Shown piece by piece: positions 12,823-46,722 of a stretch of 60,709 nucleotides of DNA; position 1 is the first letter of the stretch, and each line of letters begins with the position of its first letter. Below the pieces are notes generated by a model that was not told where the DNA came from, did no database searches, and saw nothing but the letters and a program-made list of their open reading frames with translations. A program made the position numbers and the translations under genes. The stretch is from Pseudomonadota bacterium (GTDB lineage Bacteria > Desulfobacterota > Desulfobacteria > Desulfobacterales > JAHIVH01), in the NCBI GenBank assembly GCA_018816735.1, contig JAHIVH010000044.1, positions 1 to 60,709 of the forward strand, read 5' to 3'.

Positions 12823-12843
12823 AAAACCGGCTATCACCTTTTA

Positions 12844-13422: not shown

Positions 13423-13425
13423 AAT

Positions 13426-15937: not shown

Positions 15938-16017
15938 ATCGATTCAGCCAGTGTTTTTATTCTGTTTATGTATTGCGGTTTGCATGTTAAATCTCCTGAT
16001 AAGCCAATGATGTACCC

Positions 16018-16953
16018 CTAATCTTTCTTTGTATTGCCGTAATAACCCCCATAGGCGCCATATTGCCCATAGGTATATCCATGCCCCACAGAAGCTTTGG
16101 TATCAAATTGATTAAACACAATGCCCAATATCTTGTCTTTGCCAAACATCTCTACGAGCTCTTTAATGTACAATCTGCTCGTAGATCCATATTTAATGAC
16201 CAGAATGATACCATCCACCCGCTTTGCAATCGCATTGGCCTCTGCTGTGAGCTGAGGCGGCGGGGTGTCTATCACCACATATCGGTCGTTATACCTTGTC
16301 TTCAACTCGTCAAGCAAATGTGCCATCCGTTCGGATGATAACAATTCCGAAGGATTATGAGGAGGCTTTCCTCCTGGCAGAACGGTCAGTTTATCGATAA
16401 CCGTCTTTACAAACAGTGACGGCAAGGATGCATCACCGGTAAGATAACTGCTTAAACCGGAAATACTATCCTTAAATCCGAAAAGCTTATGAATGGTGGG
16501 AAGCCTCATATCACAGTCTATCAACAGAACATGGTTGTCAATATTCTGAGCCAGGCTGATAGCCAGATTACCGGCTACAAAGGATTTTCCCTCACCGGGT
16601 ACGGCACTTGTCACCATAATCGTTTTTGGGGGGTCTCCCTTTTCAGGAAACATAATGTTTGTTTTGATAATTCTGAATTGTTCTGCTTCAACGGTATGAG
16701 GACTGTAGTAAGTAATCAGGTTTGGATGAAGCTCTCCTGTAATCAATTGACGGTCAAGCTTTTCAAATGGTGGTGGCGCTTTTTCCATGGAAACCGGATC
16801 ATCGGAAAAACCGCCTGCATCATTTCTGGGCTTGATGGTTTCAAAATCCGGTGCCATGTCAGCTTGAGGCCTATTGCCGATTTTTAAAGATGCGTCCTCT
16901 TTTTTATTTTGTTCTCTGATCGACTTTTCAAGCGCATCTGAAATTTTTCCCAA
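16018..16953 (-). CDS. BY-type tyrosine autokinase (CpsD/CapB, XrtA-type)
   Basis: 311 residues. Walker A in AVPGEGKS (about 117-124), Walker A' LLIDCDMR, and Walker B YVVIDTPPP mark a bacterial tyrosine kinase. The last 25 residues hold a Tyr cluster (YTYGQYGAYGGYYG), the expected autophosphorylation sites. I choose the TTG start because AAGGAG lies five bases before it and the protein then opens GKISDALEKS, as in the family. An ATG seven codons upstream and another TTG further up lack ribosome sites. It sits just after the Wzz-type protein, its likely membrane activator, and probably controls polymer length or export. Confidence 0.92.
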   Translation of the reverse strand: MGKISDALEKSIREQNKKEDASLKIGNRPQADMAPDFETIKPRNDAGGFSDDPVSMEKAPPPFEKLDRQLITGELHPNLITYYSPHTVEAEQFRIIKTNIMFPEKGDPPKTIMVTSAVPGEGKSFVAGNLAISLAQNIDNHVLLIDCDMRLPTIHKLFGFKDSISGLSSYLTGDASLPSLFVKTVIDKLTVLPGGKPPHNPSELLSSERMAHLLDELKTRYNDRYVVIDTPPPQLTAEANAIAKRVDGIILVIKYGSTSRLYIKELVEMFGKDKILGIVFNQFDTKASVGHGYTYGQYGAYGGYYGNTKKD

Positions 16954-17030
16954 TGTGTCTCCTTTATACCCCATAAAATCCAGGCAACGCCGGGTAGGAT
17001 TCAATGGGTTTGATTGCAACAGATATTCGA

Positions 17031-29253: not shown

Positions 29254-30231
29254 TCAGGCTTCAGCATCAACTTTGCTGTCCTCCTCAACTTCCTCAGGGC
29301 TTTCTTCCACTTTTTGCGGTTTTAGCAGCTGGTTTTCATAATCTTCCACAATTTTACGTTCAGTTGTTATGATAATGGTATTGATCACCAGTTCTTGAAT
29401 TTTGTTTTCAAGATAAGGGTTGAGCACATCCTTTAATTCATTTAGGATTTCCTGTGCCTTGTCAACCGTTCGTAATTCCTGATATGTTTTTGAGCTTAAA
29501 TAAAAAATAGCGGCTTCTCTTACCCGAGGATGAAGCTTGGGAGGGGCCGGAGGTAATGTGCCCTCTTCATATGGGACTTCAAGGATAATATCCACATCAA
29601 GGCAAAGATATCTTCGTTTATGCCGTATTTGGGTTCTGCTCAAATTAACAATAATAGATCCCAGGCTTGCTTTTATCGTCCCCCCCGTGACCTCGTCTGT
29701 ATTTTTCCCGGAACTGCTGACACGCATCCATTCCATCACCATGTCATCAAAACCTTTCAAAACAAGCCTGTCTTTATTTAACTCAACAATTTCAAAAGGT
29801 TTTGTAACCCCTTTTTGCCAGCCCGTTTCCTCGTCATCAGACGCGATTACGCTCATGACCAGAAATATTTTCGGTTTCGAAGCTTCTGTTTCAGCCTCAT
29901 TTTTTTTCCCGGTCTCATCTTTCTTTTCCTTTTCACCCTGGCCCTCAGGAAGACCGCCTTCTAACTCGTCCGTGTAAAACCATTCACCTGAAATTTTGCC
30001 TTTTTTGGCAACAATTTTGGATAATTTCCCCTCAACCCTGTTTTCAAGAATCCAGGAGCCATTGGCATGAAATGACAAAATTGAATGCACTTTGCCCTGG
30101 TTCATTCGCCAGGAACCAAGCAGAAATTCCTCTACCTTTGGTCCGCTTTTACACCCGCTTAACAAGGTCAGGTTAATCAGAAAGAAAACTGAAAGGAAAG
30201 CACAACAAAATTGAGCCTGTTTATTTATCAT
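29254..30231 (-). CDS. Lipoprotein with a FliL-like domain
   Basis: 325 residues. A lipoprotein signal peptide ends at LLSGC (Cys27). Residues about 30-190 form an unrecognised beta-rich region with a Lys/Glu-rich insert. About 200-310 resemble FliL: NLSRTQIRHKRRYLCLDVDIILE, HPRVREAAIFYLSSK and the NIIIT-like end. FliL normally has a transmembrane helix and sits at the flagellar motor. Here the domain is attached to a lipid anchor instead, with no flagellar genes nearby. The role is unknown; a periplasmic scaffold is plausible. Confidence 0.8.
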   Translation of the reverse strand: MINKQAQFCCAFLSVFFLINLTLLSGCKSGPKVEEFLLGSWRMNQGKVHSILSFHANGSWILENRVEGKLSKIVAKKGKISGEWFYTDELEGGLPEGQGEKEKKDETGKKNEAETEASKPKIFLVMSVIASDDEETGWQKGVTKPFEIVELNKDRLVLKGFDDMVMEWMRVSSSGKNTDEVTGGTIKASLGSIIVNLSRTQIRHKRRYLCLDVDIILEVPYEEGTLPPAPPKLHPRVREAAIFYLSSKTYQELRTVDKAQEILNELKDVLNPYLENKIQELVINTIIITTERKIVEDYENQLLKPQKVEESPEEVEEDSKVDAEA

Positions 30232-31772: not shown

Positions 31773-32189
31773 ATGGAAAAGACATTATCAATTATCAAAC
31801 CTGATGGTGTAAAAAAAAATGTCATCGGCGAGGTGATCAAACGCTTTGAGGCAAATGACATTAAAATAGCCGCCATGAAAATGGTTCATCTGACAAGGAC
31901 CCAGGCAGAAGGATTTTACGCTGTTCATAAAGAACGTCCTTTTTTTAAAAGTCTTACGGAATTCATGAGTTCCGGTCCCATTGTCGTTATGGTGCTAAAA
32001 GGCAATGATGTCATTGCCAAAAATCGAAAACTGATGGGGGCAACCAATTTTAAGGAGGCTGAAGAAGGAACCATTCGTAAAGATTTTGCAACTGACATTG
32101 AAAAAAACGTCGTACACGGGTCAGATGCGCCTGAAACAGCTGCTTTTGAAATCGGTTACTTTTTCAATAGCTTTGAAATCACCGGTTGA
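31773..32189 (+). CDS. ndk: Nucleoside diphosphate kinase
   Basis: 138 residues, the normal family length. It exchanges the terminal phosphate between nucleoside triphosphates and diphosphates through a phospho-His. The signature [10 protein letters not shown] opens the protein, and the active-site His lies in [18 protein letters not shown] precedes the ATG. The stop overlaps the trmJ start (TGATG), so the two genes are coupled. Confidence 0.97.
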
Positions 32190-32947
32190 TGTCTGACACC
32201 CTTATTCTCGACAATATCACTATCGTGCTGAAAAAGCCCCGGTTTCCTGAAAATATCGGGGCAACAGCACGGGCAATGAGCAACATGGGTTTGAGCCATT
32301 TGACTGTTGTTATGCCCGAGAACTATGAACTGGAAAAAATTTACAAAATGGCCACCCATAAAGCAGCGCATATTGTTGACAACGCAGTGATCGTGTCAAA
32401 TATGGAAGACGCGCTTTGTGATTTTACCTATGTTATCGGCAGTTCGGCCCGGATGGGGAAACAAAGGCTTGAATTTGATTCACCGGAAGAACTCGCAGAA
32501 AAACTGACCGCTGTTACGCACAACAACAAAACAGCCATTTTATTCGGACCGGAAGACAGAGGCCTTACAAACGAAGATATCAGATATTGCCATTCACTTG
32601 TCCATATCCCTACAGCCCAATTTTCTTCGTTGAATCTTTCACAGGCTGTAATCGTGATTGCTTACGAATTATTCAAAAAAAGTTTTGTCCCCACTGAAAT
32701 ATTTACCCCCAAACTGGCAAAAGTTATTGAGCTTGAGGGGATGTACAATCACTTGAAAGATATTCTTGAAAAAATTAAATTTGAAAATCCTCAAAACGCA
32801 GATTACTGGTTGAACCGATTCAGGAAGTTTTTCACAAGAGTTCCGATAAGAGCCAAAGAAGTCAAGTTGGTGCGGGGCATGTTAAAACAAATCAACCGAT
32901 ATGGTGAAAAAAGATACCAGGATGGTCTAAAAGACAAAAATTCATAA
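32189..32947 (+). CDS. trmJ: tRNA (cytidine/uridine-2'-O-)-methyltransferase TrmJ-like
   Basis: 252 residues of the SPOUT/TrmH class. The motifs RFPENIGATARAM, ILFGPEDRGLTNED and SLNLSQAVIVIAYEL are characteristic of TrmJ, which 2'-O-methylates position 32 of tRNA with AdoMet. A C-terminal helical extension fits TrmJ. The ATG shares its A with the ndk stop. It converges on cheR with about 32 bp between stops. Confidence 0.92.
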   Translation: MSDTLILDNITIVLKKPRFPENIGATARAMSNMGLSHLTVVMPENYELEKIYKMATHKAAHIVDNAVIVSNMEDALCDFTYVIGSSARMGKQRLEFDSPEELAEKLTAVTHNNKTAILFGPEDRGLTNEDIRYCHSLVHIPTAQFSSLNLSQAVIVIAYELFKKSFVPTEIFTPKLAKVIELEGMYNHLKDILEKIKFENPQNADYWLNRFRKFFTRVPIRAKEVKLVRGMLKQINRYGEKRYQDGLKDKNS

Positions 32948-32979: not shown

Positions 32980-33834
32980 TCAAAGTGTAAGCCTGTAGCA
33001 AATGCTCCCTTCAAAATTTATCATATCAAATCGTTCGGAATAACTTGTAACACTCTCCCCCGTCCCTAGAATTAAAAATCCCGAGGGTTTTAATACACTT
33101 TCAATTCTCCGGAACAGTTCTTTTTTGAAATTTTCCGAAAAATATATCATTACATTTCGGATAAAAATAACATCAAAGGGTCCCATGATCCCTGCAACAG
33201 GCTCTTTTAAATTAAAATTTTTAAATTTGATCATTTGTCTCACTTCTGGAGAAATGGTCCAGGCATTATCCTCTTTGGTAAAATACTTATCTATATAGTA
33301 TGACGGCAACCCTCTTCCAATGGCAATCGAATCAAATTTCCCCGATTCTGCAATTGAAAGAGCACGTGTGGAAACATCGGTGGCAAAAACCTTCACATGT
33401 TCATAAAACGTTTGGCTGAATTGAAGGCGGCCACTTAATTCCAAGGCAAGCATGGCTATTGAATACGGCTCTTGTCCTGTTGAACATGCAGCAGACCAAA
33501 TGTGAATTTTTTTATTTTCTCCTGATTGCAAACCTTCATTGAGTTCGGGAAAAATTTTTTTTTCAAGGATGGAGAAAGGATGTGTATCCCTGAACCATAA
33601 GGTTTCATTTGTGGTAATTGCATCGACAAGATCCGTTATCAGGGGACTGGTTCGTTTTGCCTCTTTAATTTTAAAATAATAATCTGTAAAGGATTTACAG
33701 TGAGATTCGTTTACAAGATGTGACAGACGGGTTTCTATCAGATATTTTTTATTTTCAGCGAGAAAAATTCCTGTTTTTTCATGGATGATATCTCTTATTA
33801 AAAGGAATTCATTCGTTGATATAGATAATTTCAT
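32980..33834 (-). CDS. cheR: Chemotaxis protein methyltransferase
   Basis: 284 residues. N-terminal helical CheR domain, then the AdoMet-binding domain with IWSAACSTGQEPYSIAM, FATDVSTRAL and FIRNVMIYF. It methylates glutamates of chemoreceptors, here probably the two MCPs in the same operon. Ribosome site AAGGAA. It is the last gene of the hydrogenase-chemotaxis operon, 47 bp after cheB. Confidence 0.95.
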   Translation of the reverse strand: MKLSISTNEFLLIRDIIHEKTGIFLAENKKYLIETRLSHLVNESHCKSFTDYYFKIKEAKRTSPLITDLVDAITTNETLWFRDTHPFSILEKKIFPELNEGLQSGENKKIHIWSAACSTGQEPYSIAMLALELSGRLQFSQTFYEHVKVFATDVSTRALSIAESGKFDSIAIGRGLPSYYIDKYFTKEDNAWTISPEVRQMIKFKNFNLKEPVAGIMGPFDVIFIRNVMIYFSENFKKELFRRIESVLKPSGFLILGTGESVTSYSERFDMINFEGSICYRLTL

Positions 33835-33881
33835 CAGGGTTCCTTAATTGAAAGGCCTCTATTAAAAGGGCATAAACGACA

Positions 33882-35054
33882 TCAGCTTCGCTTCATTTGC
33901 GGAAGTCTTTGCTGAACAAGATATATGATTCTTTCGGCAAGCTGTTCCAGGGGCACTTTTTCATCTGACAACCCCGCCTCATCCATACTTCGTGACATCC
34001 CGTAAACAACACATGTATCCTCTGTTTGAGACAAGCAGAAGCAACCTTCTTTTTTCATTTGTCTGACACCTTCCACGCCATCTTTCCCCATACCCGTCAT
34101 GATAACTGCGAGTATATTCCCGCCATAAACATGTGCAACTGACCTGAAAAGCACATCAGCAGCAGGCCGCACACTGTTCTCCGGTGGTTCTTCATTTAAA
34201 CCGATATATTTTTTATTATCAAAAAGAGGATTACTTTTTACGATCATGTGTTTACCGCCAGGCGCCACATATACGATGTTGGATCGGATCTCATCGCCAT
34301 CTACTGCTTCAACAACCTGAATATCGGAAATACTATTAAGGGTTGCAATAAATGACTTTGTCAGATGAGAAGGCATATGCTGAACAAGAAAAACAGGGAC
34401 CCCAATGTTGGCTGGCAAGCCGGGTATCACTTGTTCCAATGATTTGGGCCCCCCCGTGGATGATGCAATCACAACAACATCAATCCTGGAAAGAAGCAAT
34501 GTAATTTTTGAGGATTCCTTTTTATGTAAAATAATATCATCCTGATCTTTTTTGCTTCCCAAATCCTTTTTTTGCGCGTTTGGAGGCTCAACCGGATTGC
34601 CCAAAGGGACCGCCCTGGGTATCCCCGGAGAGCTGGTCAATTTAAAATTTTTCTGTGATTTGATCGGGGCGATCATTGTAATAAATCTTAATCGTAATGC
34701 CCTGAACTGTTTCTCATCACCACGAATTGTTCCTAAAAAATCTGAGGCCCCAAGGCGGGAAGCCTTTTCAAAATCTGTCCCGTCATCTTCTGACTCACAG
34801 TTAATCATAATGATTTTCACTGCCGGATAATTTTCCCTGACTTCTTTAACAATTTTAAAACCATCGGTTGATGCCAGCTTCATATCAACCAAAACCAGAT
34901 CCGTTTCAATGCTCCTCAATTTTGACAGGGCAAGACCGCAGGTTGAAACGACGCCAACAATCTCCGTATCGGCTATTTCTTCTGCGACACGCCAGATAAT
35001 TTCCTGATGAATTACATTGCCATCGACAACCAATATTTTTACCAAATTATCCAT
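33882..35054 (-). CDS. cheB: Chemotaxis methylesterase CheB with a degenerate receiver
   Basis: 390 residues: receiver (about 1-125), linker, and methylesterase domain (about 205-385). The esterase catalytic residues are present in ASSTGG, QHMPSHL and MTGMGKDG. In the receiver the phosphorylatable Asp is kept (LVLVDMK), but the acidic pair VDD reads VDG, and the expected Lys-Pro near the end of the domain reads GTI. The conserved Thr/Ser is also not obvious. So phosphorylation control may be weak or absent. It removes methyl or amide groups from the operon's MCPs. Confidence 0.93.
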   Translation of the reverse strand: MDNLVKILVVDGNVIHQEIIWRVAEEIADTEIVGVVSTCGLALSKLRSIETDLVLVDMKLASTDGFKIVKEVRENYPAVKIIMINCESEDDGTDFEKASRLGASDFLGTIRGDEKQFRALRLRFITMIAPIKSQKNFKLTSSPGIPRAVPLGNPVEPPNAQKKDLGSKKDQDDIILHKKESSKITLLLSRIDVVVIASSTGGPKSLEQVIPGLPANIGVPVFLVQHMPSHLTKSFIATLNSISDIQVVEAVDGDEIRSNIVYVAPGGKHMIVKSNPLFDNKKYIGLNEEPPENSVRPAADVLFRSVAHVYGGNILAVIMTGMGKDGVEGVRQMKKEGCFCLSQTEDTCVVYGMSRSMDEAGLSDEKVPLEQLAERIIYLVQQRLPQMKRS

Positions 35055-35094
35055 TACCTGTCAGTCCATTTCCTCTGATTATTTTTTATAATCC

Positions 35095-37338
35095 CTAAAT
35101 TCTGAATTGCTCAATAACGGCTTTTAAATGGGAAGAAATCCTTGCAAGCTCTTCAGCCTGTTTTTTCGTAGATGCCGCCCCCGTGGATGTGGCGCCAACA
35201 GATTCATGAACGCCTTTTACATTCTCCAGCACAATATTGGTTTCAGCAGCTGCCTCTCCGGTATCCTTGGAAATTGTATGGGCACCACTCGCGACTTCAC
35301 CTAAATTTCTTGAAATCTCAAGCTCCATATTGATGGCTTCCTGAACGTTTTGAGAAGCGTCTTCTGCTCCTTTTGCCGCCTCTGTCACATTGTTTGAAAC
35401 CGTTTTGGCCGCACTGGCTGTATCACCAATATTTTTTGATATTTCATTTGTGGTTGCCGTCTGTTCTTCAACAGCTGTTGCGATATTCCCCATAATCAAA
35501 TTAATTTCCGAGATAACGCTTACAATTGCCTCAATTGCTTTAACGGCAGCTTCTGTGTTTTTCTGCATACCTTCCACTTTTTCCCGAATTTCCTCAGTAG
35601 CACCTGACGTTTGGCGGGCCAGTTCCTTGACTTCATTTGCAACAACTGCAAATCCTTTCCCGGCCTCACCCGCACCCGCTGCTTCAATTGTAGCATTTAA
35701 AGCCAGAAGATTCGTTTGGGCGGCAATACCTTGAATCAGCTCAACAACATCTCCTATTTCTCTGGCTGCCCCTCCCAGGGTGACCATCAATTCTGACGTC
35801 ACGCCAGCCTGTTCTGATGCATCATTGGTTACATTTGCACCTCGGGAAGAATTCCTCGCCACTTCATTTAATGTGGCGTACATCTCATCTATTGCCACAG
35901 CAACCGTATTCACCGCATTTGACATCTGTTCAGCCGCGCTGGCGACAGAATTGAGATTATCAGAAACATTACCGGAAGCATCTCCTATTTCTCGCATATT
36001 TTTTGAAAGCCCTTGGGATGCAGAGGCAATCGAGGACACCTGCGCACTAATCTGTTCAATAGCTGTTGCAATATTTTTTATTTTTTCATTCGTTTTATCA
36101 GTGGCTTGTTCGGCATCGTCGGATTGACCTTTCATTGTCATTGCCTTTTGTCCCATGTCTTCTGATATGTCGAGCAGCTCTTTTGATGAATTATTTAAAA
36201 GAATCACATCTTCAGTGACACGTTTTATCGTATTCTGTAACTTATCGACAAACTGATTAAACCACTTTGCCAGCTCACCTATCTCCGTCTTTTCAACAAC
36301 ATCGATTCTACTGGTGAGATCTCCCTCGCCTTCTGCGATGTCCCGCAAACTTTTCACCACCATGTTGATACTGTTCTGGGTCGATCGAATGGTAAAAAAA
36401 CCGATAATCAACAATGCAGAAATCCCTATGGCCAGAATAATCATACCGAATATACGCCCGATGGCAGTTACTTTTTTGATCTCCTGACTTGAGATATCAA
36501 TAATTTCAGTTGTCAAACGCTGTATTAAATCGCCGGTCTGTTTTAATTCATTATTCAGGTCAACGTTATTTTTCAGATTCATGGAAATGCCGTCTTCAAT
36601 GTCTTTCACTTCCGGCCATACCCTCATGGCTTTGTTCCAGTTTCCGAGGTAATCAGACTTATTGATAAGCCGTGCAAGATTGTTCATTTTTACAATCTCT
36701 GCAGAAATGAATTTCTCGGATTCCTCCCTTTTCTGGGAATAGGCCTCAAAATCAAGCTGAACAAAAAGGGATTGAAGCAAAATAATGATCTTGTCTATTT
36801 TTCCCTGCATAATAACAAGCTGATCTCTGAAAGCAGATTCATTTGAGGAGAGTGATTCGCCTTCCATAGATAAAAAAGATTCTTCATTACTTATCATTCC
36901 AACAATACCTGAAAGTTGCTGTGTAACCTGACCGAGTTTTTCATAGAAAATTTTGAGACTCTCCTTTGTTTTCTTTTTATTTTCCAGGATTTTGTCAAAT
37001 ACCTTATATCGCTCTTCATTGGCTTCAGATATCTGGTTTAAAATATTTCGAGCATCTTCTCTTAGGGAGAAGGCGTCGACCCGCTTCAAAAGGGTTTCCA
37101 TTTCCTTTCTTATTGTCTGGATATGATCAAGCAAACCAGCGTCATTTAACTTGATAAACTGTTCTTCAAGCATCATGCATTTGGAAATATTCAAGGCCAC
37201 TTTCTTGCTGTAATCTGACATTTCAGCTCTTTTATTTTTTGAAGCGTCAATAATCAAATTGGTTGTAAAAATAAAAAAAAGCAGCACAATACCAATCAAC
37301 AACAGCAATGAAATTCTTGATTTTATGCTTGCAAACAT
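35095..37338 (-). CDS. Methyl-accepting chemotaxis protein with large helical sensor domain
   Basis: 747 residues. Transmembrane helices at about 8-30 and 297-317 bracket a 265-residue, all-helical periplasmic domain of a size fitting a helical bimodular (HBM-like) sensor. HAMP and the long signalling coiled coil follow, with the highly conserved hairpin tip [20 protein letters not shown]. No CxxCH is present. The C-terminus IEQFRI resembles that of the next MCP, and there is no NWETF-type tether. It follows the heme MCP by 39 bp. Ribosome site GGGAGA. Confidence 0.95.
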
Positions 37339-37377
37339 ATTCTTCTCCCTTTTTTAAGGTCTTATATGCCGTATGGG

Positions 37378-39321
37378 TCAGATTTTAAAATGACTGATAA
37401 TTTTCTGCAGTTGATTGGCCAGTTTCGCAAGGTCATCGGCTTGTTTTTGCGTGTCTATGGCATCATCTGACGTTGCATTAATAGCCACATTCAAGTCAGA
37501 AACATTCTTTAATACATTTTCTGTTTCAGTTGAGGCCTGTGCGGCATCTTTTGCAATTGCCACGGCAGCTTTGGTGACATCTTCCAGATTTCGCGACACT
37601 TCAGCACCGGATTTAATTGCAGCTTGAATATTTTCTGAGGCCTTATCAGCACTTTTTGCGGCGTCCTGGACCATTTTCGAGACAGATGTCGCAGAGTCTG
37701 CGGCTTCACCAACGCTTTTTGATATTTCATTTGTGGTTGCCGTTTGCTGCTCAACGGCTGAAGCAATGGTACTCATGATTGAATTTATTTCTGATATGGC
37801 CTTCACAATAGCTTCGATTGCAAAAACAGCAGAATCAGTATTGTTCTGCATGCCTTCAACTTTTTCACGGATTTCCTCTGTGGCTCCTGCGGTTTGCCGG
37901 GCCAGTTCCTTCACTTCGTTTGCGACCACGGCAAATCCTTTACCGGCCTCTCCTGCCCCGGCAGCCTCAATTGTAGCATTCAGGGCAAGCAGATTGGTTT
38001 GTGCGGCAATTCCCTTGATCAGATCAACCACATCACCAATTTCACTGGCTGCATTTCCTAGAGCATTCACTATACCTGATGTTTCACCGGCCTTATCCGA
38101 TGCATTACTTGTCATGTCAGCGCCTCTTCCGGAATTTTTAGCCACTTCATTCAATGTGGAATACATCTCTTCAATTGCAACAGCCACACTTTTAACCGAT
38201 CCGGACATTTGTTCCGCAGCACTTGCCACTGAGTGAAATGTTTCTGTCACATCAGAGGTAATTGAACCAATCGTGTTCATATTTCCCGCAAGATCATCAG
38301 AAGCAGAGGAAACCGTTGATACCTGGGCACTGACCTCTTCTGCCGCAGTGGCGATATTTCTTATGCTTGCAGAAGCATTTTCAGAAGATGTTTGCACAAC
38401 AGTTGACTGACCGTCCATCTGATCGGACTTTCCTGCCATATCATCCGAAATTGTTTTCAATTGCGTTGAAGAAACAATCAAGCGTTCAATGTCCTCTCTG
38501 ACTTTTCCGATCATATCAGAAAGTCTGCTTACAAAAATATTAAACCATTTGGCGACTTCCCCCACTTCATCATTTGAATTAATCTCCAGCTTTTTTGTTA
38601 AATCGCCTTCACCTTCAGCAATATCTTTCAGCATTTCAACTGTTTTTCCAAGGGGAAGCGAAACGAATTTTCGAACGAGCACATAGGTGGATATACTCAT
38701 TACCATTATTAGAAAAACAACGACGATAAAAGAACTCAAAAGGATAATTCGCTTCATATGTGAAATCGCAATAGACGCTTTCCGGTTTGCATTTTTCAGG
38801 GCCTCATTGGAAAATCTGAAATGGGTTATTCCGCCGGATTCGCCTGGCTGCCAGCTTGTATGACACCGAATGCAATCATGATTGACTTTTTGTGATTTAA
38901 AAATTTCAATGGCATCTGACGATTCAAACGCGTATATTTCCTTTTTTTCATTTTCCATCAGTTGTTTGACATTCTTTGGAATTTTGTTCCCTATACTTTT
39001 TGAATCGGAAGAAAATTTAACGATACCGTCACGATCGAACAGGGAAAATTCAATCAATCCTTCAATTTCATTCAAGGCAGTTAATAAATCACTGAACTTT
39101 TCCATTTCCCCCCTTTCTAAAGAGCCTGCAACAGCTCGCTCTGCAGATCGGTGCATATCATGGGCAAATTCGGATTCTCTTTTTTCCAGAATACTGATGC
39201 TGGTGCTTGATAAATCAGACGCAAGTTTTGTAATGGTGATGTATTGAAAACATTGTGCCGTCAAAACCACAGCTATAAGACCGGCAAGAAGAGAAAGCAC
39301 AAGTTTGGTATGAAGTTTCAT
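37378..39321 (-). CDS. Methyl-accepting chemotaxis protein with periplasmic c-heme
   Basis: 647 residues. Transmembrane helices at about 8-26 and 191-213 bracket a periplasmic sensor that carries a heme c attachment site, CIRCH (Cys150, Cys153, His154). HAMP (with EGDLTKK) and the signalling domain follow, with hairpin tip [20 protein letters not shown]. Heme-c receptors such as Desulfovibrio DcrA sense oxygen or redox state. Its ATG overlaps the stop of the hydrogenase small-subunit gene by 4 bp, so the two are translationally coupled. I infer that the heme receives electrons from, or senses the state of, that hydrogenase. Confidence 0.93.
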
Positions 39322-40241
39322 AGCTTTTCCTTTATTTTTTCATTCTTTCTGTAAAAAGAAAAAGATGCGTGCCGAGCAAATGATTCTGACGCGCAACCAA
39401 TGCAGGGACCGCCTGCAGGTATGCAGGAGTTGGTGCCGTCGTTCCATAATCTCAAATTACAATCACCATGGGTAATGATTCCAAGACATCCCAGTTTAAA
39501 CAAGCACCCGCTTGATGAAAATGTTTCAGCGAAATTCTCCCGCTCATAATCCGAAAACCGGGGGCACTGGTCATGTATCAATCGATCAAAAAACATCCTG
39601 GGCCTTCCCAATGCATCCATATCCGGCTGGCCAAATTTTAATAAATGAACCAGTGTTCCCACAAACCAGTCCGGATGGACCGGACAACCGGGTATGCAAA
39701 TAACGGGTCTTGGCAATTGCTCTTTCTCAAGGAATTCTTTCAGGCTTAGGGCGCCGGTGGGATTGTTCTCGGCAGCAGGGATACCTCCAAAAGAAGCGCA
39801 CGTACCCACAGCAATAATGGCCTTTGATCGGGTTGCCGCGCTTAATATAAGGTCCGAAACGGGCTTGCCTCCCATTTTGCAGGCCTCAGGCATGCCATAA
39901 GGCACACTGCCCTCAACCACCAGGATGTAATCCCCCTTTGAGATGACGTTGTCAACCAGATCCATACTCACATGACCTGTTGCAGTTGATAGTGTTGAAT
40001 GGAATAAAAGTGAAATATATCGCGTCAAGATTTCAGCCGGTCCCGGGTCAGCTGAATTCAATAAAGACACTGAACATCCCGAACAACTTTGACCACTCAG
40101 CCATAAGACATTCACCTGGCCTGAAACAAGATGTTCCAGTGCATCTGCGACATCAGGAATCATATGACTGGATAGTCCTATCAATGCCGCATACCTGGTA
40201 CTGAGTTCCAGAAATTCTCTCCGGGTAATTTTTGCCGACAT
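39318..40241 (-). CDS. [NiFe] hydrogenase small subunit, Tat-exported
   Basis: 307 residues. A Tat signal is visible (TRREFLE, residues 6-12, then a hydrophobic stretch). The Fe-S cluster ligands follow the group 1 pattern: [14 protein letters not shown] (Cys53, Cys56), [22 protein letters not shown] for the proximal cluster, and a C-terminal set with [16 protein letters not shown] and GGPCIGC for the other clusters. There is no C-terminal transmembrane anchor, so the dimer should be soluble in the periplasm. Ribosome site AAGGAG. The stop overlaps the heme MCP start. It is separated from the large subunit by a CheY-like gene, an unusual arrangement. Confidence 0.95.
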
Positions 40242-40307
40242 AATAATACTCCTTGTTAACTGACTGAGGCTACTTTCTGTTGCCTGATTTTGTCATAAAA
40301 ATAAAAG

Positions 40308-40898
40308 TTATGTAGCGACAACAATCTTTTGAAGCGTTTTTTCCACATGAGCTGTTGTAAAAGGCTTGATAATATATCCGTTTATCCCATGATTGATGGC
40401 CTCCATGACACTTTTTTGATGGCCCTGGCTTGTGACCATCACAAACAGACTCTTAGAAAGACCTGGCACGGCTTTAACGATTTTCAGCAGATCGAGTCCT
40501 GTGATTTCGGGCATATTCCAGTCGGAGATAATCAGATCATAACGCACGTCTCTCAATTTCTGAATAGCAGGTTTCCCGTCGTTCGCATCATCAATATTTG
40601 CGGAAACAAACCCGATATCCTTTAAAGCGCCTTTCATGAGGCCTCTTATTGTGGACTGATCATCAATCACGAGCACACGCATCTCTTCCCATTTGGTTTT
40701 CAAAGACGCCTCCGGCTCCGGCCATCTCTTTTTAAGAGCCTCAACAACACCCTCAAAATCAGACGTTTGGGCCGCTGCAGTTTTGGACTTTATGATGTTC
40801 TCGATGAACACATTTAAATGATCAAGTGTTGTCAGCTGTTTTGGAATGATGACATGATAATTGTCGCCTTCTTCCCGGATTTCCGGTTTTGTTTCCAT
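40308..40898 (-). CDS. CheY-like response regulator with N-terminal extension
   Basis: 196 residues. The C-terminal 125 residues are a complete receiver: VLVIDDQ, the phospho-acceptor Asp in ISDWNMP, VTSQG and the Lys in IIKPF. About 70 residues precede it (with VIIPKQLTTLDHLNVFIENI), a domain I do not recognise. It lies between the hydrogenase large- and small-subunit genes, with GGAGG before the ATG. It is the only CheY candidate in the operon and so the probable output of CheA. Confidence 0.92.
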   Translation of the reverse strand: METKPEIREEGDNYHVIIPKQLTTLDHLNVFIENIIKSKTAAAQTSDFEGVVEALKKRWPEPEASLKTKWEEMRVLVIDDQSTIRGLMKGALKDIGFVSANIDDANDGKPAIQKLRDVRYDLIISDWNMPEITGLDLLKIVKAVPGLSKSLFVMVTSQGHQKSVMEAINHGINGYIIKPFTTAHVEKTLQKIVVAT

Positions 40899-40931
40899 CT
40901 ATGCCTCCTTCATTTATGCAATGTCCTTATT

Positions 40932-42446
40932 TTAATGCACAGCACAGGCAATACAAGGGTCAAACGACCTAACAACCCTTGCAACCGCCATAGGATTTTT
41001 TTCATCCGTAACAGGGGTTCCGATCAATGCAAATTCAACTGCTCCAGGGATTCCCCGATCATCCCGCGGAGAACAATTCCATGTTGTCGGCACCACGCAC
41101 TGATAATTGGCTATTTTGTAATTTTCAATATTTATCCAGTGTCCCAGAGCACCTCTGGGCGCCTCTGTCAATCCGACACCACGGCCTGTCTTGCAGATTT
41201 CAAAATCATTGAAAACCGGTTTGCCAACATTTAAATTTTCTATCCATTCAATACATCTTTCAGCAAGGATTTGACTCTCAATAGCCCTGGCAGCATGACG
41301 CCCCATGGCAGATATCAAGGCATCCGGTTTCAATCCTGTTCTTGCCAACAGGGCATCGATATGTTTGGTTACGACAGGATTTCTGCCTTTCTTATGGCTA
41401 ATCATTAAACGGGCAAGAGAGCCGACTTCCATAACCTTGCCGCCATATCTGGGAGCCTTGATCCATGAATATGCCTTATGTTTTTCCGGGGCAGGTTCAG
41501 TTCTTCCCAAATCAGGGCTCAGACCGGACTCAGAAGAAAACAGGGAGTAAGCCACATCTTCAGTAATCTTCATTGGGTCCAGTTCATAAATTTGGCCGTC
41601 AATAATGGCGCCATTTGAAAACAAATGATTTGAATTGCCATCATTTTCGGGAAAAACGCCATAACCCAAAAAATTCCCATATCCTTTCCCCATATTGAAA
41701 TATTCCGGAAATGCGGAAGCCACAGCTATCACATCAGGGACGTATGAATGATCAATAAAAGATTGAAGGGTTTTCATCATTGAAAGACAGGCTGCGATCT
41801 TTTTAGCGGTCACAATTTCCGTAACACCTCCGGGCACAATAGTCGTTGTATGGGGCAGCTTTCCGGCAAATATGGCTCCCAATTTATGGGCCAGAGCCCG
41901 CATGGAAAGCGCATCCAGATAATGCTTGATCGCCAGAATGTTCAACTCTGTATTTTCAATATAATTCGAATCATATCGGGGTAAAAACGGTGCTGCCGGG
42001 TAAAGCGATTTTGATGAGAGCTGAGCGTTTACCCAGTCTTTCAGTTCCAGAAGTGCCGGATCTTTTCCTGTATAAGCGGCAATTTTGGCGATATCGACAA
42101 AATCAAGCGCTGATAAATGATAAAAATGAATGATGTGAGACTGGATATAATTGGCAGCAAGGATAATATTCCTGATGATACGGCCATTTGAAGGGGGACT
42201 CACCCCGTATGCTTCCTCCTGAGCCTGAACAGACGCCATTCCATGTGATACAGGGCAGACACCACAGATTCTCTGGGTTATCTGTTGCGCATCAAGCGGA
42301 TCCCGCCCCGTCAATATTTGTTCAAATCCCCGAAACATTTCTCCTGCACTATAAGCACTTACAACTTTCCCGGATTCAACCTCGACACGAATCGCGAGGT
42401 GTCCTTCAATTCTTGTTATGGGATCAATGTCAATCGTTCGGGCCAT
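40932..42446 (-). CDS. [NiFe] hydrogenase large subunit without C-terminal maturation peptide
   Basis: 504 residues. The Ni ligands are in RICGVCPVSH (Cys61, Cys64) and DPCIACAVH (Cys498, Cys501). The stop TAA follows the final His directly, so the usual 10-20 residue extension cut off by a maturation protease is missing, as in H2-sensing HoxC/HupV. Cys, not Sec, occupies the terminal ligand. There is no signal peptide, so export would be by piggy-back on the Tat-tagged small subunit. The gene is between cheW and a CheY-like gene. No maturation protease gene lies nearby. Ribosome site AGGGAGA. Confidence 0.96.
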   Translation of the reverse strand: MARTIDIDPITRIEGHLAIRVEVESGKVVSAYSAGEMFRGFEQILTGRDPLDAQQITQRICGVCPVSHGMASVQAQEEAYGVSPPSNGRIIRNIILAANYIQSHIIHFYHLSALDFVDIAKIAAYTGKDPALLELKDWVNAQLSSKSLYPAAPFLPRYDSNYIENTELNILAIKHYLDALSMRALAHKLGAIFAGKLPHTTTIVPGGVTEIVTAKKIAACLSMMKTLQSFIDHSYVPDVIAVASAFPEYFNMGKGYGNFLGYGVFPENDGNSNHLFSNGAIIDGQIYELDPMKITEDVAYSLFSSESGLSPDLGRTEPAPEKHKAYSWIKAPRYGGKVMEVGSLARLMISHKKGRNPVVTKHIDALLARTGLKPDALISAMGRHAARAIESQILAERCIEWIENLNVGKPVFNDFEICKTGRGVGLTEAPRGALGHWINIENYKIANYQCVVPTTWNCSPRDDRGIPGAVEFALIGTPVTDEKNPMAVARVVRSFDPCIACAVH

Positions 42447-42494
42447 GTTTATCTCCCTGATATCGTCTTATGGGTTTTCAATGTCAGACATCTT

Positions 42495-42935
42495 TCAGTC
42501 TTTTTCTTTGTACACCCCGTCATACTCAATAATTTTACTTGCTGAAAGAATGACGAGAAGATTTTCATTCAGCTTTTTTACACCCTCAACAAATCTTGAT
42601 TTCATCCCTTTTAGATTGGCTGGGGGAATTTCAATTTCGTTTTCGTCAGCCTCGATCACATCACCTATGTTATCGACGATTAACCCTACGGCATCCTTTT
42701 TCAGAATAATATTATGGCTTTCTTCTGTAATGTCTCTTTTGCCAAATCCTATTCGAACAGCCAGATCAAATACCGTTACCGTATTTCCCCTCAGATTAAT
42801 TAGCCCGCGAACATAATCAGGCGCGTGTTGCACAGGTGTAATCTCCAGAATACGGTTAATCTCTCTGACATCCTTAATATCAATGCCAACCAGATGATCC
42901 ATGATGTTAAATGTAATAAACTGACTGATTGCCAT
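42495..42935 (-). CDS. cheW: Chemotaxis coupling protein
   Basis: 146 residues, a single CheW domain with ITFNIMDHLVGIDIKDVREI, APDYVRGLINLRGNTVTVFDL and VDNIGDVIEAD. It couples MCPs to CheA. The start at MAISQF is preferred because AGGAG lies at usable distance; the ATG four codons upstream touches it. It lies between cheA and the hydrogenase large-subunit gene in one transcript. Confidence 0.95.
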   Translation of the reverse strand: MAISQFITFNIMDHLVGIDIKDVREINRILEITPVQHAPDYVRGLINLRGNTVTVFDLAVRIGFGKRDITEESHNIILKKDAVGLIVDNIGDVIEADENEIEIPPANLKGMKSRFVEGVKKLNENLLVILSASKIIEYDGVYKEKD

Positions 42936-43042
42936 TCCTTTAAGCATCTCCTGTCACGAATGATTTCATGGTGTGATATGGAAATAAAAAGTGTATTGAA
43001 TGTCTGACTTTGCCAAATAAAACCGTATCATGCCGATCAGGG

Positions 43043-45820
43043 TCATAAAGCAGGCACATGCTCATAAATCAATTCCAGAAGTTCAACTGTGTTTAAAAAC
43101 ATGGTCAGATTCCCATTTACAAATGCGGTCCCCAGCAAACCCTGAGGGGTTGTTTTATCATGCTTGACATCTACATTTACATCAATGGTATCCATAATAT
43201 TAGATACGGCTATACCTACAGAGTCTATATTTGTTTTGGGGACAAGCATAAAATACTGTTCCATATCTTTTGGAAACGGTTTTACCGGTAGAATATCTTC
43301 TAGATAAACAAGTGGAATACTTTCATTCAGATATGCAATAAAATCTCGTTTGCCAATCCTGTAAATATCGTCAGGCTTGATTAGTTCGAGTCTTGAAATC
43401 GCCTCAAGTGTCAGGGCAAAATGTTCGTTTTCAGCAGAATTGAAAAGGAGTATCGATTCAAAATTACCTTTTCTGCCCTGTTTTTTTCTTTCTTCTATTG
43501 CGTTTCTCCTATGGGCTTCCCTGTTCACTTCCGTAAAATTAAGTTTGGCACATTCTGCAATTCCCACAGCATCCAGAATCATTGCAACGCGGCCATCCCC
43601 CATAATGGTTGCCCCTGCAAAACATCTGCAATCCTTGATATGGGTTGACAATGGTTTTACCACGATTTCCTCATTATCATAAAGCCTGTCCACAATCAGT
43701 CCAAAGCTGTTATTGCCGATTTTTAAGACCACAACATTAACGTCATTCCGCCAACTGGAACGTCTGTCATTTGAAAGTTTCCGCCTTTCGGTTGAATCAG
43801 GGTCCTCACTTTCAGCACCAATGCTTTCATTTCTTCTGTCATCGCTTTTCAGACGCCGATCCGCCATAGGCTCATTTGTGAGAGGTGTGTAATATTTCTT
43901 TTCAATACCCAGTACATCTGAAAGATTGACCAAAGGCAGAAGACGCTCCCTGACACGCAAGACTTCGGCATCACCAATCTTTTCAATTTTTCTTGATTTT
44001 TCCCCCACCCTGATCAGAAAAAGCTCCTGAACGTTTACCTGGGGAATAGCAAATCTCAAATCTCCGGAGCCGACAATCAGAGAAGGGATGATTGCTAACG
44101 TCAATGGCAATCGGATACGAATGGTCGTTCCTTTTCCCGGTTTGCTTTCAAGCTCAAGCTGGCCACCCAAGGCTTCGATGTTGGTTTTCACGACATCCAT
44201 GCCAACACCTCTGCCGGAAATATCCGTAATGGATTCTGCGGTGGAAAAACCGGGAAGCATAATCAGGTTTATTTTTTCGCTATCACTTAAATAAGCCGCT
44301 CTGTCCGCTGAAATATTGCCACTTTCAATGGCTTTTTTAAGAATGACTTCCGGGTCGATGCCTTTGCCATCATCCTTAACAATGATATTAACCTGGCCAC
44401 CTTCATGAAATGTACTGACTTGAAGCTTACCTACTTTTGACTTACCGTTTTTCTCTCTTTGAGCAGGCAATTCAATGCCATGATCCAGGCTGTTTCGAAT
44501 AAGGTGTGTTAACGGATCTGACAAACCTTCCAGCATGGTCTTATCAAGCTCAACATCCTTTCCCTCTATGATCAGTTCGACTTCTTTTGAAAGCTGCCTT
44601 GCAATATCTCTCACAATCCTTGAAAACTTGTTAAAAAGATTCCCTACCGGCTGCATGCGCATCTTCATGATATCTTCCTGAATTTCACTTGTCACGGCAT
44701 CCACATTCTGAATAATGGTATTTAATTTGGGATTGCTTCGTACGACAGTTTCAAGTTCCTGCCTGAGCTGGTTCCGGCCCAACACAAGCTCTCCTGCAAG
44801 ATTCATCAAACTGTCAATCACGGTGACACTGACGCGAATGGTTTCAGGTGACGTACTTTTTTCCGGTTTATTGTTGGGTGCCAATTTACCTGTATTGCTT
44901 AAAGCAGTTGTCTTGCTGATTATGGGCGTTTTTCTTTCATCTGAAGGCTCTGCCTTGGTTTCTACAGACACATTCTTTGGCATTTCATCAATCAAAAAAT
45001 CGAGTTTCAGCAATTCTTTTTGACAGTCGATATCATTTGAGCAATGGATATTGTCAAAAAGCTCCAGAACTTTACTCAAACCATCAAACAGAATGTCCGC
45101 CTGATCCTTTCTTACAAGGTCCGCCATTTGTCTGAATCTGCCAAATACGATTTCAAGACGCTTGCCCAATTCATACAATTGCCTGAAATTCAAAAACCTG
45201 GCGCCGACTTTGATATGGTGTACAGTTTTGTAAAGTGCCTTATAATCATCAGTTGAAATATCATGGGGATTATTTTTAAGTGATATAAAAATCGGATTTA
45301 TTTCAGCAATTCGATCCATGGTCTCATTTATCAAATCATTCACAACCGAATCATCCCGTGACTCGTCCGAAACAGGTTCTGAGGTGACAGGGATATCATC
45401 CTTTGCAGGGACTATTTGATCATTGCTCATTTCTTTTTCGAGGATGGCATTTATTTTCCGGATCTCTTCATCACATGGGATTTGGTTGCTTGAATGCACA
45501 TCGCTGAGCATCAGTCTCACTTTGTCTATTCCCTGAAAAATCGGGTCCATCCTGTCGGGGTCAGGCGTTAATTCACCATCCCTGAATTTCATAAAAACAT
45601 TTTCCATGGCATGGCTCAGACGGGTCAATGCGTCAAAGCCGAAAAAACTCGAAGCCCCTTTAATGCTGTGCATGGCACGAAAAATTCTATTGATAATATT
45701 ATAATCAATTTGGTCGCAGTGTTGTTCCAAAATAAGCAGATCCGGCTCTATCGACTCAAGATGATCCGAACTTTCAGCGACAAATTCGCTTATAATGTTT
45801 TTACTATGAATCTCATCCAT
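43043..45820 (-). CDS. cheA: Chemotaxis histidine kinase CheA with two Hpt and two CheW-like domains
   Basis: 925 residues. First Hpt with AMHSIKGASSFFG (phospho-His at about 51); second Hpt-like domain with VHHIKVGARF (His kept, the usual KG replaced by KV). Then dimerisation, the HATPase with IRNSLDHGIEL, DDGKGID and GRGVGMDVV, a CheW domain with a charged insert (about 620-690), and a second CheW-like domain at the C-terminus (about 780-915). It is the kinase of the hydrogenase-chemotaxis operon and its first gene. ATG chosen with AAGGG about 10 nt upstream; a TTG lies one codon earlier. Confidence 0.95.
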   Translation of the reverse strand: MDEIHSKNIISEFVAESSDHLESIEPDLLILEQHCDQIDYNIINRIFRAMHSIKGASSFFGFDALTRLSHAMENVFMKFRDGELTPDPDRMDPIFQGIDKVRLMLSDVHSSNQIPCDEEIRKINAILEKEMSNDQIVPAKDDIPVTSEPVSDESRDDSVVNDLINETMDRIAEINPIFISLKNNPHDISTDDYKALYKTVHHIKVGARFLNFRQLYELGKRLEIVFGRFRQMADLVRKDQADILFDGLSKVLELFDNIHCSNDIDCQKELLKLDFLIDEMPKNVSVETKAEPSDERKTPIISKTTALSNTGKLAPNNKPEKSTSPETIRVSVTVIDSLMNLAGELVLGRNQLRQELETVVRSNPKLNTIIQNVDAVTSEIQEDIMKMRMQPVGNLFNKFSRIVRDIARQLSKEVELIIEGKDVELDKTMLEGLSDPLTHLIRNSLDHGIELPAQREKNGKSKVGKLQVSTFHEGGQVNIIVKDDGKGIDPEVILKKAIESGNISADRAAYLSDSEKINLIMLPGFSTAESITDISGRGVGMDVVKTNIEALGGQLELESKPGKGTTIRIRLPLTLAIIPSLIVGSGDLRFAIPQVNVQELFLIRVGEKSRKIEKIGDAEVLRVRERLLPLVNLSDVLGIEKKYYTPLTNEPMADRRLKSDDRRNESIGAESEDPDSTERRKLSNDRRSSWRNDVNVVVLKIGNNSFGLIVDRLYDNEEIVVKPLSTHIKDCRCFAGATIMGDGRVAMILDAVGIAECAKLNFTEVNREAHRRNAIEERKKQGRKGNFESILLFNSAENEHFALTLEAISRLELIKPDDIYRIGKRDFIAYLNESIPLVYLEDILPVKPFPKDMEQYFMLVPKTNIDSVGIAVSNIMDTIDVNVDVKHDKTTPQGLLGTAFVNGNLTMFLNTVELLELIYEHVPAL

Positions 45821-45905
45821 CAAGGAATACCCTTTTCGCGTTCATGAATGATATATTTTTCTGGGATTCCGGGTTTGGTAAATCTGATCTGTTGATCTGG
45901 CCCGG

Positions 45906-45933
45906 CTCATAGATAAAAAAAATTATTTATGAG
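45906..45933 (-). promoter_or_regulatory. Inverted repeat in the leader of the cheA operon
   Basis: CTCATAGATAA and TTATTTATGAG form an 11-bp inverted repeat with one mismatch and a 6-A spacer, just downstream of the predicted transcription start and about 90 bp before cheA. It could be an operator or an mRNA hairpin. Confidence 0.5.
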
Positions 45934-45947
45934 ATATGATGAGAGCT

Positions 45948-45976
45948 ATCATAAAAAAAAATCCATGAAATGTCAA
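45948..45976 (-). promoter_or_regulatory. Sigma70 promoter of the hydrogenase-chemotaxis operon
   Basis: On the minus strand TTGACA and TATGAT are separated by exactly 17 bp, close to consensus. The predicted start is near 45941, giving a leader of about 120 nt before cheA. ATCATA and TATGAT also form a short palindrome around it. Confidence 0.7.
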
Positions 45977-46217: not shown

Positions 46218-46314
46218 CTTTTGAAATGCCTATCTCTAAAGGGAGTCAGAAAAAATACCGATACAAATACAAAAATGCTAATATTGACTTCATGAATTGA
46301 GGAATGACCCCGGT

Positions 46315-46722
46315 ATGACGTTAAAAACAATTCTTATGATGATAACGATTCTTTTTATTTCCGTTATATCTCATGCAAGAGACTATAAAATAGAAATATT
46401 TAAAGAAAACTATAAAGAAAAATTGATACCAGGTGGTGGTGAACTGAAACTATATCATACTTGGCAGGCAAAAACCGTATTTGGAAACAAACTTCTTGTA
46501 CTGGTTGGAAATGATTCTGATTACCGAAACTGGCTAAGGGAATCTCTTAAAAAAAACAAACTCTACATCGTTAAAATACCAAAACAGGGTGAGAATGCAT
46601 TTGAAAATGATTTGGCGATCCCGGTTGATATTCAACAGATTCACCCAGTATGGGATGAAAAATGGGATTGCAGCGGATGCCGGCATGGCAATCCGGAAGA
46701 AGAACCTCAAAAAAATATGTAA
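46315..46722 (+). CDS. Small secreted hypothetical protein
   Basis: 135 residues. A signal peptide covers about the first 22 residues (MTLKTILMMITILFI, ending SHA). The mature part is beta-rich and basic, and ends with WDCSGCRHG, a CxxC pair near the C-terminus that could bind a metal or be redox active. No heme CxxCH. GAGGA precedes the chosen ATG by 11 nt. I do not recognise the family. It is divergent from the cheA operon. Confidence 0.65.
   Translation: MTLKTILMMITILFISVISHARDYKIEIFKENYKEKLIPGGGELKLYHTWQAKTVFGNKLLVLVGNDSDYRNWLRESLKKNKLYIVKIPKQGENAFENDLAIPVDIQQIHPVWDEKWDCSGCRHGNPEEEPQKNM

What the first reader, a model, noticed from the sequence alone, without database searches (positions are those of the whole stretch)
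32980..45976. A [NiFe] hydrogenase embedded in a complete chemosensory operon: candidate H2/redox-taxis system
Seen: nine same-strand genes in order cheA, cheW, hydrogenase large subunit, CheY-like regulator, hydrogenase small subunit, c-heme MCP, second MCP, cheB, cheR, with gaps of about -4 to 107 bp and one near-consensus promoter. Known: Tat-tagged small subunits carry the dimer to the periplasm, and heme-c MCPs such as DcrA sense redox state. Inference: H2 oxidation in the periplasm reduces the receptor heme and alters CheA activity, so the cell steers by (or responds to) H2. The output could be flagella, type IV pili or gene control. I know of no described hydrogenase wired into a chemotaxis operon in this way.
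Basis: partly seen in the sequence, partly recalled or inferred. Interest (0 to 1): 0.96.

Follow-up and report, generated by a model that had tools for sequence, protein, structure and literature searches.

The report
Hydrogenase-wired chemoreceptor for hydrogen gas
Bacteria of many phyla carry hydrogenase genes right beside a gene for a chemotaxis receptor, here inside one run of nine chemotaxis and hydrogenase genes; the pair likely works as a hydrogen-gas sensor in which electrons taken from hydrogen are predicted to switch the receptor, which would let cells steer by or respond to hydrogen.

Summary
In detail: nine same-strand genes (cheA, cheW, [NiFe] large subunit, cheY-like, small subunit, heme MCP, MCP, cheB, cheR) lie at 32980-45823. 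The conserved core is large subunit, small subunit and heme receptor. In 97 examined loci, 64 of 77 large subunits that end at the catalytic His (no C-terminal extension) have the sensor plus an MCP within 4 kb; 0 of 18 with an extension do. A partly overlapping phylum sample repeats this: 17 of 19 against 0 of 18. The two enzyme types fall on opposite sides of one branch of the tree. The receptor's periplasmic Cache-type domain has an invariant CxRCH and Met73 (50 of 50); a related branch without the heme motif lacks that Met too (0 of 11). One locus has a CheA-like kinase in place of the MCP. Best reading: a dedicated periplasmic H2 sensor, hydrogenase to Fe-S chain to receptor heme to CheA. 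Electron transfer and taxis are inferred, not shown. HydDB lists [FeFe] "chemotactic (putative)" and kinase- or cyclase-linked [NiFe] sensors, no [NiFe]-MCP class in the passages seen.

The parts
43043..45823 (-). cheA (926 aa; Hpt, H-kinase_dim, HATPase_c, CheW-like domains)
   Evidence: Pfam
42495..42947 (-). cheW
   Evidence: Pfam PF01584
40932..42446 (-). [NiFe] hydrogenase large subunit, 504 aa, no C-terminal extension
   Evidence: Pfam PF00374; NCBIfam NF033181 672 bits, cut-off 600; closest solved structures are NiFeSe hydrogenases
42255..42272 (-). RICGVC: N-terminal Ni-site ligands Cys61 and Cys64 (role recalled)
   Evidence: invariant in 12 aligned large subunits
40935..40961 (-). 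DPCIACAVH-stop: C-terminal ligands Cys498 and Cys501; the gene ends at the His after which other hydrogenases are cleaved
   Evidence: sequence; the 120 closest listed proteins also end here, 120 of 120
40308..40898 (-). response regulator with CheY domain (196 aa)
   Evidence: Pfam PF00072; 80% identical in G001
39318..40241 (-). hydrogenase small subunit, 12 Fe-S ligand positions for three clusters (assignment recalled), no TM helix
   Evidence: Pfam PF01058 and PF14720; ligands; hydropathy scan
40209..40223 (-). RREFL twin-arginine motif of the small subunit
   Evidence: sequence; motif in 71 of 72 no-extension-group small subunits
37378..39321 (-). MCP1: TM1 7-25, periplasmic Cache-type domain, TM2 192-210, HAMP, MCP signalling domain
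   Evidence: Pfam, hydropathy scan, AF2 model of residues 1-245, pLDDT 90
38860..38874 (-). CIRCH heme-c motif of MCP1 (residues 150-154)
   Evidence: C150, R152, C153, H154 invariant in 50 of 50
39103..39105 (-). Met73 of MCP1, candidate distal heme ligand
   Evidence: Met in 50 of 50 sensors with CxxCH, 0 of 11 without
35095..37338 (-). MCP2, no CxxCH motif, periplasmic part without Pfam match
   Evidence: Pfam; translation; motif scan of its G001 counterpart
33882..35054 (-). cheB
   Evidence: Pfam PF01339 and PF00072
32980..33834 (-). cheR
   Evidence: Pfam PF01739
45948..45976 (-). sigma-70-like promoter TTGACA-N17-TATGAT
   Evidence: 11 of 12 matches; consensus match only

Best explanation
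The locus encodes a [NiFe] hydrogenase with a twin-arginine-type small subunit and an adjacent heme-c-motif chemoreceptor that together likely act as one H2 sensor, in which electrons from H2 are predicted to pass through the small subunit's Fe-S chain to the receptor's heme and so change CheA kinase activity. Shown by sequence: all Ni and Fe-S ligand positions, the twin-arginine motif, a receptor whose CxxCH domain lies between two predicted TM helices, and a cross-phylum conserved gene unit tied to the hydrogenase subtype that lacks the C-terminal extension. Inferred: export of the dimer to the periplasm, docking at the distal cluster, heme reduction with His/Met ligation, signalling through TM2 and HAMP to CheA/CheW, adaptation by CheR/CheB, and output through the operon's CheY-like protein. 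The most likely output in this genome is flagellar taxis (flagellins and FliM are present). The unit is a portable H2 input: elsewhere it feeds MCPs of various lengths or, in one locus seen, a CheA-like kinase.
For: Gene unit: 64 of 77 no-extension large subunits have sensor and MCP on the same strand within 4 kb, 5 more the sensor alone, 3 an MCP alone, 5 neither; 0 of 18 extension enzymes have either (after three duplicates are dropped, 61 of 74). Phylum sample of 395 genomes: 17 of 19 against 0 of 18. Reverse direction: 16 of 16 sensor hits with E <= 1e-50 lie beside a listed large subunit; in the order sample 19 of 20 with E <= 1e-60 lie beside the small and/or large subunit. The 120 closest listed large subunits all end at the His. 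Tree: one change separates 76 no-extension from 18 extension rows, SH-aLRT 95. Catalytic ligands intact. Tat-type motif 71 of 72. Met73 and CxxCH occur together, 50 of 50, and are missing together, 11 of 11. Small-subunit residue 235, nine residues after distal ligand Cys226, is Glu in 51 of 55 heme-type, Lys, His or Arg in 9 of 11 heme-less, Gly in 15 of 17 extension-type. L152: sensor with heme motifs fused to an HATPase domain and an Hpt-like stretch in the MCP's place. The window genome's two maturation-protease hits lie by its C32 and C20 hydrogenases, none by this one. Flagellins 4 hits, FliM 1.
Against: No biochemical data. A heme-less branch (11 sensor rows, 9 of them Planctomycetota by record title) keeps hydrogenase and MCP together, so reduction of a heme is not needed in all. 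Five no-extension loci have neither sensor nor MCP; two of these end within 1.4 kb of the large subunit (L054, L075), but L057 and L073 (8 kb of room) and L045 (2.3 kb) are real exceptions. Orphan sensor-type MCPs exist: G024:C31, and eight of ten hits between E 1e-50 and 1e-36 lie beside no listed large subunit. These genome searches score only the first few candidates per genome (3, 7, 14), so the reverse counts can miss cases. One extension locus, L142, has an MCP 4.0 kb and a sensor 6.5 kb downstream. A February 2026 preprint finds a HAMP-linked heme-Cache protein to be NO-binding (abstract and passages). The residue 235 pattern may only follow phylogeny. The small subunit could also pass electrons to soluble cytochromes.
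Confidence: 0.65

Rival explanations
1. Contact signalling: the hydrogenase docks on the receptor and its H2-dependent state, not an electron, is read by the Cache domain; the heme is an addition in one branch.
For: The heme-less branch (11 sensors, no CxxCH, no Met73) is homologous (hhalign probability 99.9), has the same predicted order of helices and strands and still sits beside hydrogenase genes. Known HK-linked sensory [NiFe] hydrogenases signal through a partner protein (recalled).
Against: In the window's branch CxRCH and Met73 are invariant in 50 of 50, and all three Fe-S clusters with an exit at the distal cluster are kept, which contact alone would not need.
Confidence: 0.15
2. The receptor is a gas or general redox sensor (NO, O2, CO or potential, as DcrA or the heme-Cache proteins), and the hydrogenase only keeps its heme reduced and ready.
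For: A preprint reports NO binding by a HAMP-linked heme-Cache protein (PMC12889525, abstract and passages); the fold search lists heme-Cache Tll0287 (5b82, E 7e-3) and GSU0935 (3b42, E 6e-3) among weak matches.
Against: The invariant Met73 suggests a six-coordinate, redox-type heme (inference). Gas sensors need no linked hydrogenase, yet the stronger sensor hits lie beside one in 19 of 20 (with 52) and 16 of 16 (with 59).
Confidence: 0.1
3. An ordinary uptake hydrogenase that happens to be co-transcribed with chemotaxis genes, supporting energy taxis indirectly.
For: The enzyme is catalytically complete by sequence and close to NiFeSe uptake hydrogenases.
Against: No cytochrome or quinone-reducing subunit among the nine genes; association with sensor and MCP is seen for the no-extension type only (64 of 77 against 0 of 18) and in record titles of many phyla.
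Confidence: 0.08

Closest known systems
HK-linked sensory [NiFe] hydrogenases (HydDB group 2b; HupUV, HoxBC)
   Same: [NiFe] enzyme used for H2 sensing through a signalling partner; large subunit without the C-terminal extension (that trait is recalled, not confirmed in the passages)
   Different: Here the small subunit has a twin-arginine motif, the large subunit is NiFeSe-like by NCBIfam, which I file under group 1 from memory, and the partner is an MCP with a heme-motif Cache domain
[FeFe] group C2 'Chemotactic (putative)' of HydDB
   Same: Hydrogenase proposed to act on methyl-accepting chemotaxis proteins (Table 1 passage)
   Different: Unrelated [FeFe] enzyme; here [NiFe], export motif, separate small subunit
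Heme-c MCPs: DcrA, GSU0582/GSU0935
   Same: MCP with one periplasmic heme-c site; Pfam PF21563 matches 20 of 50 sensor rows at E <= 1; 3b42 in the fold search
   Different: No hydrogenase partner is known to me; the window's own sensor has no PF21563 match
Heme-Cache family DUF3365/Tll0287 (PF11845)
   Same: Cache fold with CxxCH; 17 of 50 rows match weakly; 5b82 in the fold search
   Different: Sequence matches are weak; candidate axial ligand is Met73, whereas Tll0287 uses Cys (passage)
Periplasmic NiFeSe and group 1 uptake hydrogenases (HysAB)
   Same: Closest solved structures; same Ni and Fe-S ligand positions, four-Cys medial cluster (recalled assignment)
   Different: Cys in place of Sec; no C-terminal extension; tied to a receptor gene

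Membership tests
Group 1 [NiFe] hydrogenase (NiFeSe-like clade) | PF00374 large subunit with two CxxC motifs, NCBIfam NF033181 over cut-off | tested here: met
Group 1 [NiFe] hydrogenase (NiFeSe-like clade) | Small subunit with Tat signal and three Fe-S clusters | tested here: met
   RREFL motif and 12 ligand positions; cluster assignment from recalled numbering; export itself not tested
Group 1 [NiFe] hydrogenase (NiFeSe-like clade) | C-terminal extension removed by a dedicated protease | tested here: not met
   gene ends at His504; no protease hit at this locus
Sensory [NiFe] group 2b (HupUV/HoxBC) | Small subunit without Tat signal (cytoplasmic; recalled) | tested here: not met
   twin-arginine motif
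Sensory [NiFe] group 2b (HupUV/HoxBC) | Histidine kinase partner | tested here: not met
   partner in the window is an MCP with CheA/CheW; a kinase partner was seen only in L152
[FeFe] group C2 | [FeFe] H-cluster enzyme | tested here: not met
   large subunit is PF00374
Heme-Cache (DUF3365/Tll0287) | Cache fold | tested here: met
   AF2 pLDDT 90; WalK, KinD, DctB and CitA sensor domains among the best matches
Heme-Cache (DUF3365/Tll0287) | CxxCH heme motif in the domain | tested here: met
   residues 150-154, 50 of 50 rows; heme attachment itself not tested
Heme-Cache (DUF3365/Tll0287) | PF11845 match | tested here: inconclusive
   17 of 50 rows at E <= 1, best 0.0034; none for the window's row
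Chemoreceptor (MCP) | HAMP and MCP signalling domain | tested here: met
   PF00672 and PF00015 over cut-off
H2-responsive chemosensory system | CheA activity or motility changes with H2 | not testable with these tools
   needs bench work

The most novel reading that the evidence does not exclude
A previously undescribed, cross-phylum class of sensory [NiFe] hydrogenase: an exported, protease-independent enzyme whose dedicated electron acceptor is a chemoreceptor, so that the receptor's 'ligand' is an electron taken from H2, with a heme-less sister branch that reads the hydrogenase by contact. It would be the molecular basis of bacterial H2 taxis.
Probability: 0.5. Interest if true: 0.93.

Novelty: new variant of a known kind. 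Interest (0 to 1): 0.85.

Why it matters
H2 is a central currency of anoxic ecosystems, and my searches (open-licence papers only) listed no [NiFe]-MCP sensor for it. If true, a simple sequence rule (no C-terminal extension plus neighbouring MCP) would flag sensing rather than respiratory hydrogenases within this clade, which surveys that read such genes as H2 oxidation would miscount. It would also give a receptor class in which an enzyme is the sensing head, testable in a cultured relative (Desulfobacter vibrioformis, L108).

Tried and rejected
Chance clustering: rejected by conservation. A nine-gene conserved operon: not shown; only G001 keeps six of the nine on its short contig, other loci read keep the three-gene core. 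Selenocysteine enzyme: rejected, the C-terminal motif reads DPCIACAVH with TGT codons. Sequence search of the sensor profile against solved structures found nothing convincing (best E 0.012, a designed protein). Known-function match for the sensor in Pfam: only weak, partial. Literature for a [NiFe]-MCP sensor: searches listed nothing that I recognise as describing it, judged from titles and abstract starts; the library holds open-licence papers only, so this is not proof. Passages read: PMC5037454, PMC10787695, PMC10116758, PMC3460858, PMC9100943 (does not state the HoxC trait); PMC12889525 abstract and passages; PMC4817680 not held. Co-inheritance: distance correlations of 0.82-0.93 between large subunit, small subunit and sensor over 60 loci, 0 of 2000 permutations as high; this shows shared descent, not contact. 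The heme-less sensor model is weaker (pLDDT 73). Heme-Cache structures 5b82 and 3b42 are not among the 50 rows shown by the second fold comparison, only in the first. The tree program warned of long-branch joins with L102; no careful tree was run. G165 has small subunit and MCP on one contig and its large subunit on another, unexplained.
Full report
Observation. Nine minus-strand genes fill 32980-45823 of the window, in transcription order cheA, cheW, [NiFe] large subunit, CheY-like regulator, small subunit, MCP1, MCP2, cheB, cheR, with gaps of -4 to 95 bp. A promoter-like TTGACA-17-TATGAT lies upstream of cheA. The neighbouring ORFs on both sides, 32186-32947 and 46297-46722, are on the other strand.

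The hydrogenase. The large subunit scores 672 bits against NCBIfam NF033181 (cut-off 600), and its closest solved relatives are NiFeSe hydrogenases, but the motif at the end reads Cys, not selenocysteine. Cys61, Cys64, Cys498 and Cys501 are invariant in 12 aligned relatives. The gene stops right after DPCIACAVH, so there is no C-terminal extension to cleave. The small subunit has a twin-arginine motif, no TM helix by hydropathy and Cys or His at all twelve positions that serve three Fe-S clusters in relatives (each 55 of 55 heme-type rows; in heme-less rows one Cys, residue 56, is kept in 8 of 11). The genome holds three further PF00374 genes, on C32, C131 and C20, whose products run on past the His; its two maturation-protease hits lie near those on C32 and C20, not here.

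The conserved unit. In 194 genomes of the order, 18 have a large subunit at E <= 1e-150. Reading around them showed that what recurs is large subunit, small subunit and an MCP whose N-terminal sensor resembles MCP1's. Over these 80 and 17 loci from the order: large subunits ending at the His, 77, of which 64 have sensor and MCP on the same strand within 4 kb, 5 sensor only (four of them at a contig end, the fifth, L113, with a short receptor under Pfam's MCP cut-off), 3 MCP only, 5 neither; with a 14-15 residue extension, 18, of which none has either; 2 cut short. Without three duplicates the counts are 61 of 74. Among the three MCP-only loci, L074 does carry a heme-less-type sensor when its DNA is read by eye. 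In extension loci the small subunit mostly precedes the large one; in the others it mostly follows. Because only the best 80 were kept, the extension enzymes here are the nearest ones, not a fair draw of all hydrogenases.

A second, less selected sample. In 395 genomes of the phylum, 38 large-subunit matches have E <= 2.6e-145, the window's among them (at most three candidates per genome were scored). I fetched the other 37 and scored them: 19 end at the His, 17 with sensor and MCP next door, one at a contig end (L148), one with another partner (L152); 18 have an extension, none with sensor and MCP adjacent (L142 has an MCP 4.0 kb and a sensor 6.5 kb downstream). Of three matches added by choice, two, with only 43-44% identity, also end at the His and have the MCP; the third has an extension and none. 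At least two contigs overlap with the first sample. From the sensor side, 16 of 16 hits with E <= 1e-50 lie beside a listed large subunit; between 1e-50 and 1e-36 only 2 of 10 do, so the sensor family also has orphan members. In the order sample 19 of 20 hits with E <= 1e-60 lie beside a small and/or large subunit; the exception is G024:C31, and two weaker ones that I read (G040, G127:C101) also have none.

Tree. A quick tree of 94 large subunits, C-terminal extension removed, needs one change to separate 18 extension rows from 76 others (SH-aLRT 95), and puts the 11 heme-less loci in one group of 14 rows with three rows in which no sensor was scored (SH-aLRT 99). It is rooted on the extension rows, so it shows a split, not a direction. 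The 120 closest listed proteins of the large protein set all end at the His (7998 matched in all).

The sensor. MCP1 residues 26-191 lie between two predicted TM helices. AF2 gives a Cache-type domain at mean pLDDT 90; best solved matches are sensor domains of WalK, KinD, DctB and CitA, with heme-bearing GSU0935 and Tll0287 among weak ones in the first comparison only. In 50 sensors R70, G71, M73, L94, C150, R152, C153, H154 and G164 are invariant. Eleven sensors, nine of them of Planctomycetota by title, have no CxxCH; all eleven also lack Met at position 73, although the domain is the same by profile comparison and predicted secondary structure. Joint loss or gain of CxxCH and Met73 is what one expects if Met73 is the second axial ligand. 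I infer His/Met ligation, hence a redox rather than gas-binding site; this is not shown.

Mechanism. Both the twin-arginine motif and heme-c attachment place the partners in the periplasm (established knowledge). The nine genes include no other evident electron acceptor. I therefore infer H2 oxidation at the Ni-Fe site, electron flow through proximal, medial and distal clusters, and reduction of the receptor heme, with signalling through HAMP to CheA/CheW and adaptation by CheR/CheB. Two findings fit an interface at the distal cluster and a portable input: small-subunit residue 235 differs by class (Glu 51 of 55; Lys, His or Arg 9 of 11; Gly 15 of 17), though this may follow descent, and L152 joins a sensor of this family, with two heme motifs, to an HATPase domain and an Hpt-like stretch (the latter just under Pfam's cut-off) in the MCP's place. 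Receptor length varies widely, so outputs probably differ. The window's genome has four flagellin matches and FliM and five CheA-type matches, so flagellar output is possible but not assigned.

What is known. HydDB Table 1 lists [NiFe] 2b (kinase-linked), 2c (cyclase-linked, putative) and [FeFe] C2 (chemotactic, putative), and no [NiFe]-MCP class in the passages seen. A 2026 preprint on heme-Cache domains does not mention hydrogenases in its main text (0 occurrences). Eight literature searches on the pair listed no description. The finding is thus a new variant of sensory hydrogenases, with strong comparative evidence and no functional test yet.

Noticed in passing
window 29254-30231 (-): Lipoprotein-like ORF with a FliL domain (Pfam PF03748), a few genes from the che operon.
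   Followed up: no
window 20922-22805 (-): Class-I adenylate cyclase (Pfam PF12633 and PF01295), unexpected to me in a Desulfobacterales-like genome.
   Followed up: no
window 10154-18617 (-): Polysaccharide export/synthesis genes: UDP-sugar dehydrogenase, sugar transferase, Wzz.
   Followed up: no
L152 2-5096: No-extension large subunit, small subunit, then a sensor with two CxxCH motifs fused to an HATPase domain and Hpt-like stretch instead of an MCP.
   Followed up: partly
L045, L057: Two Omnitrophota loci with no-extension large and small subunits but no MCP or sensor nearby, beside ORFs that look like NADH dehydrogenase subunits to my eye (start sequences; name recalled).
   Followed up: no
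L053, L058: Magnetococcales receptors of the unit carry a second CxxCH in an insertion of the sensor domain.
   Followed up: no
small subunits of the heme-less group: Two of 11 have Asp at the position of Cys56, a proximal-cluster ligand by recalled numbering.
   Followed up: no
L046, L047: Gene order small subunit-MCP-large subunit (L046) or MCP-large subunit at a contig start (L047), a permutation of the unit.
   Followed up: no
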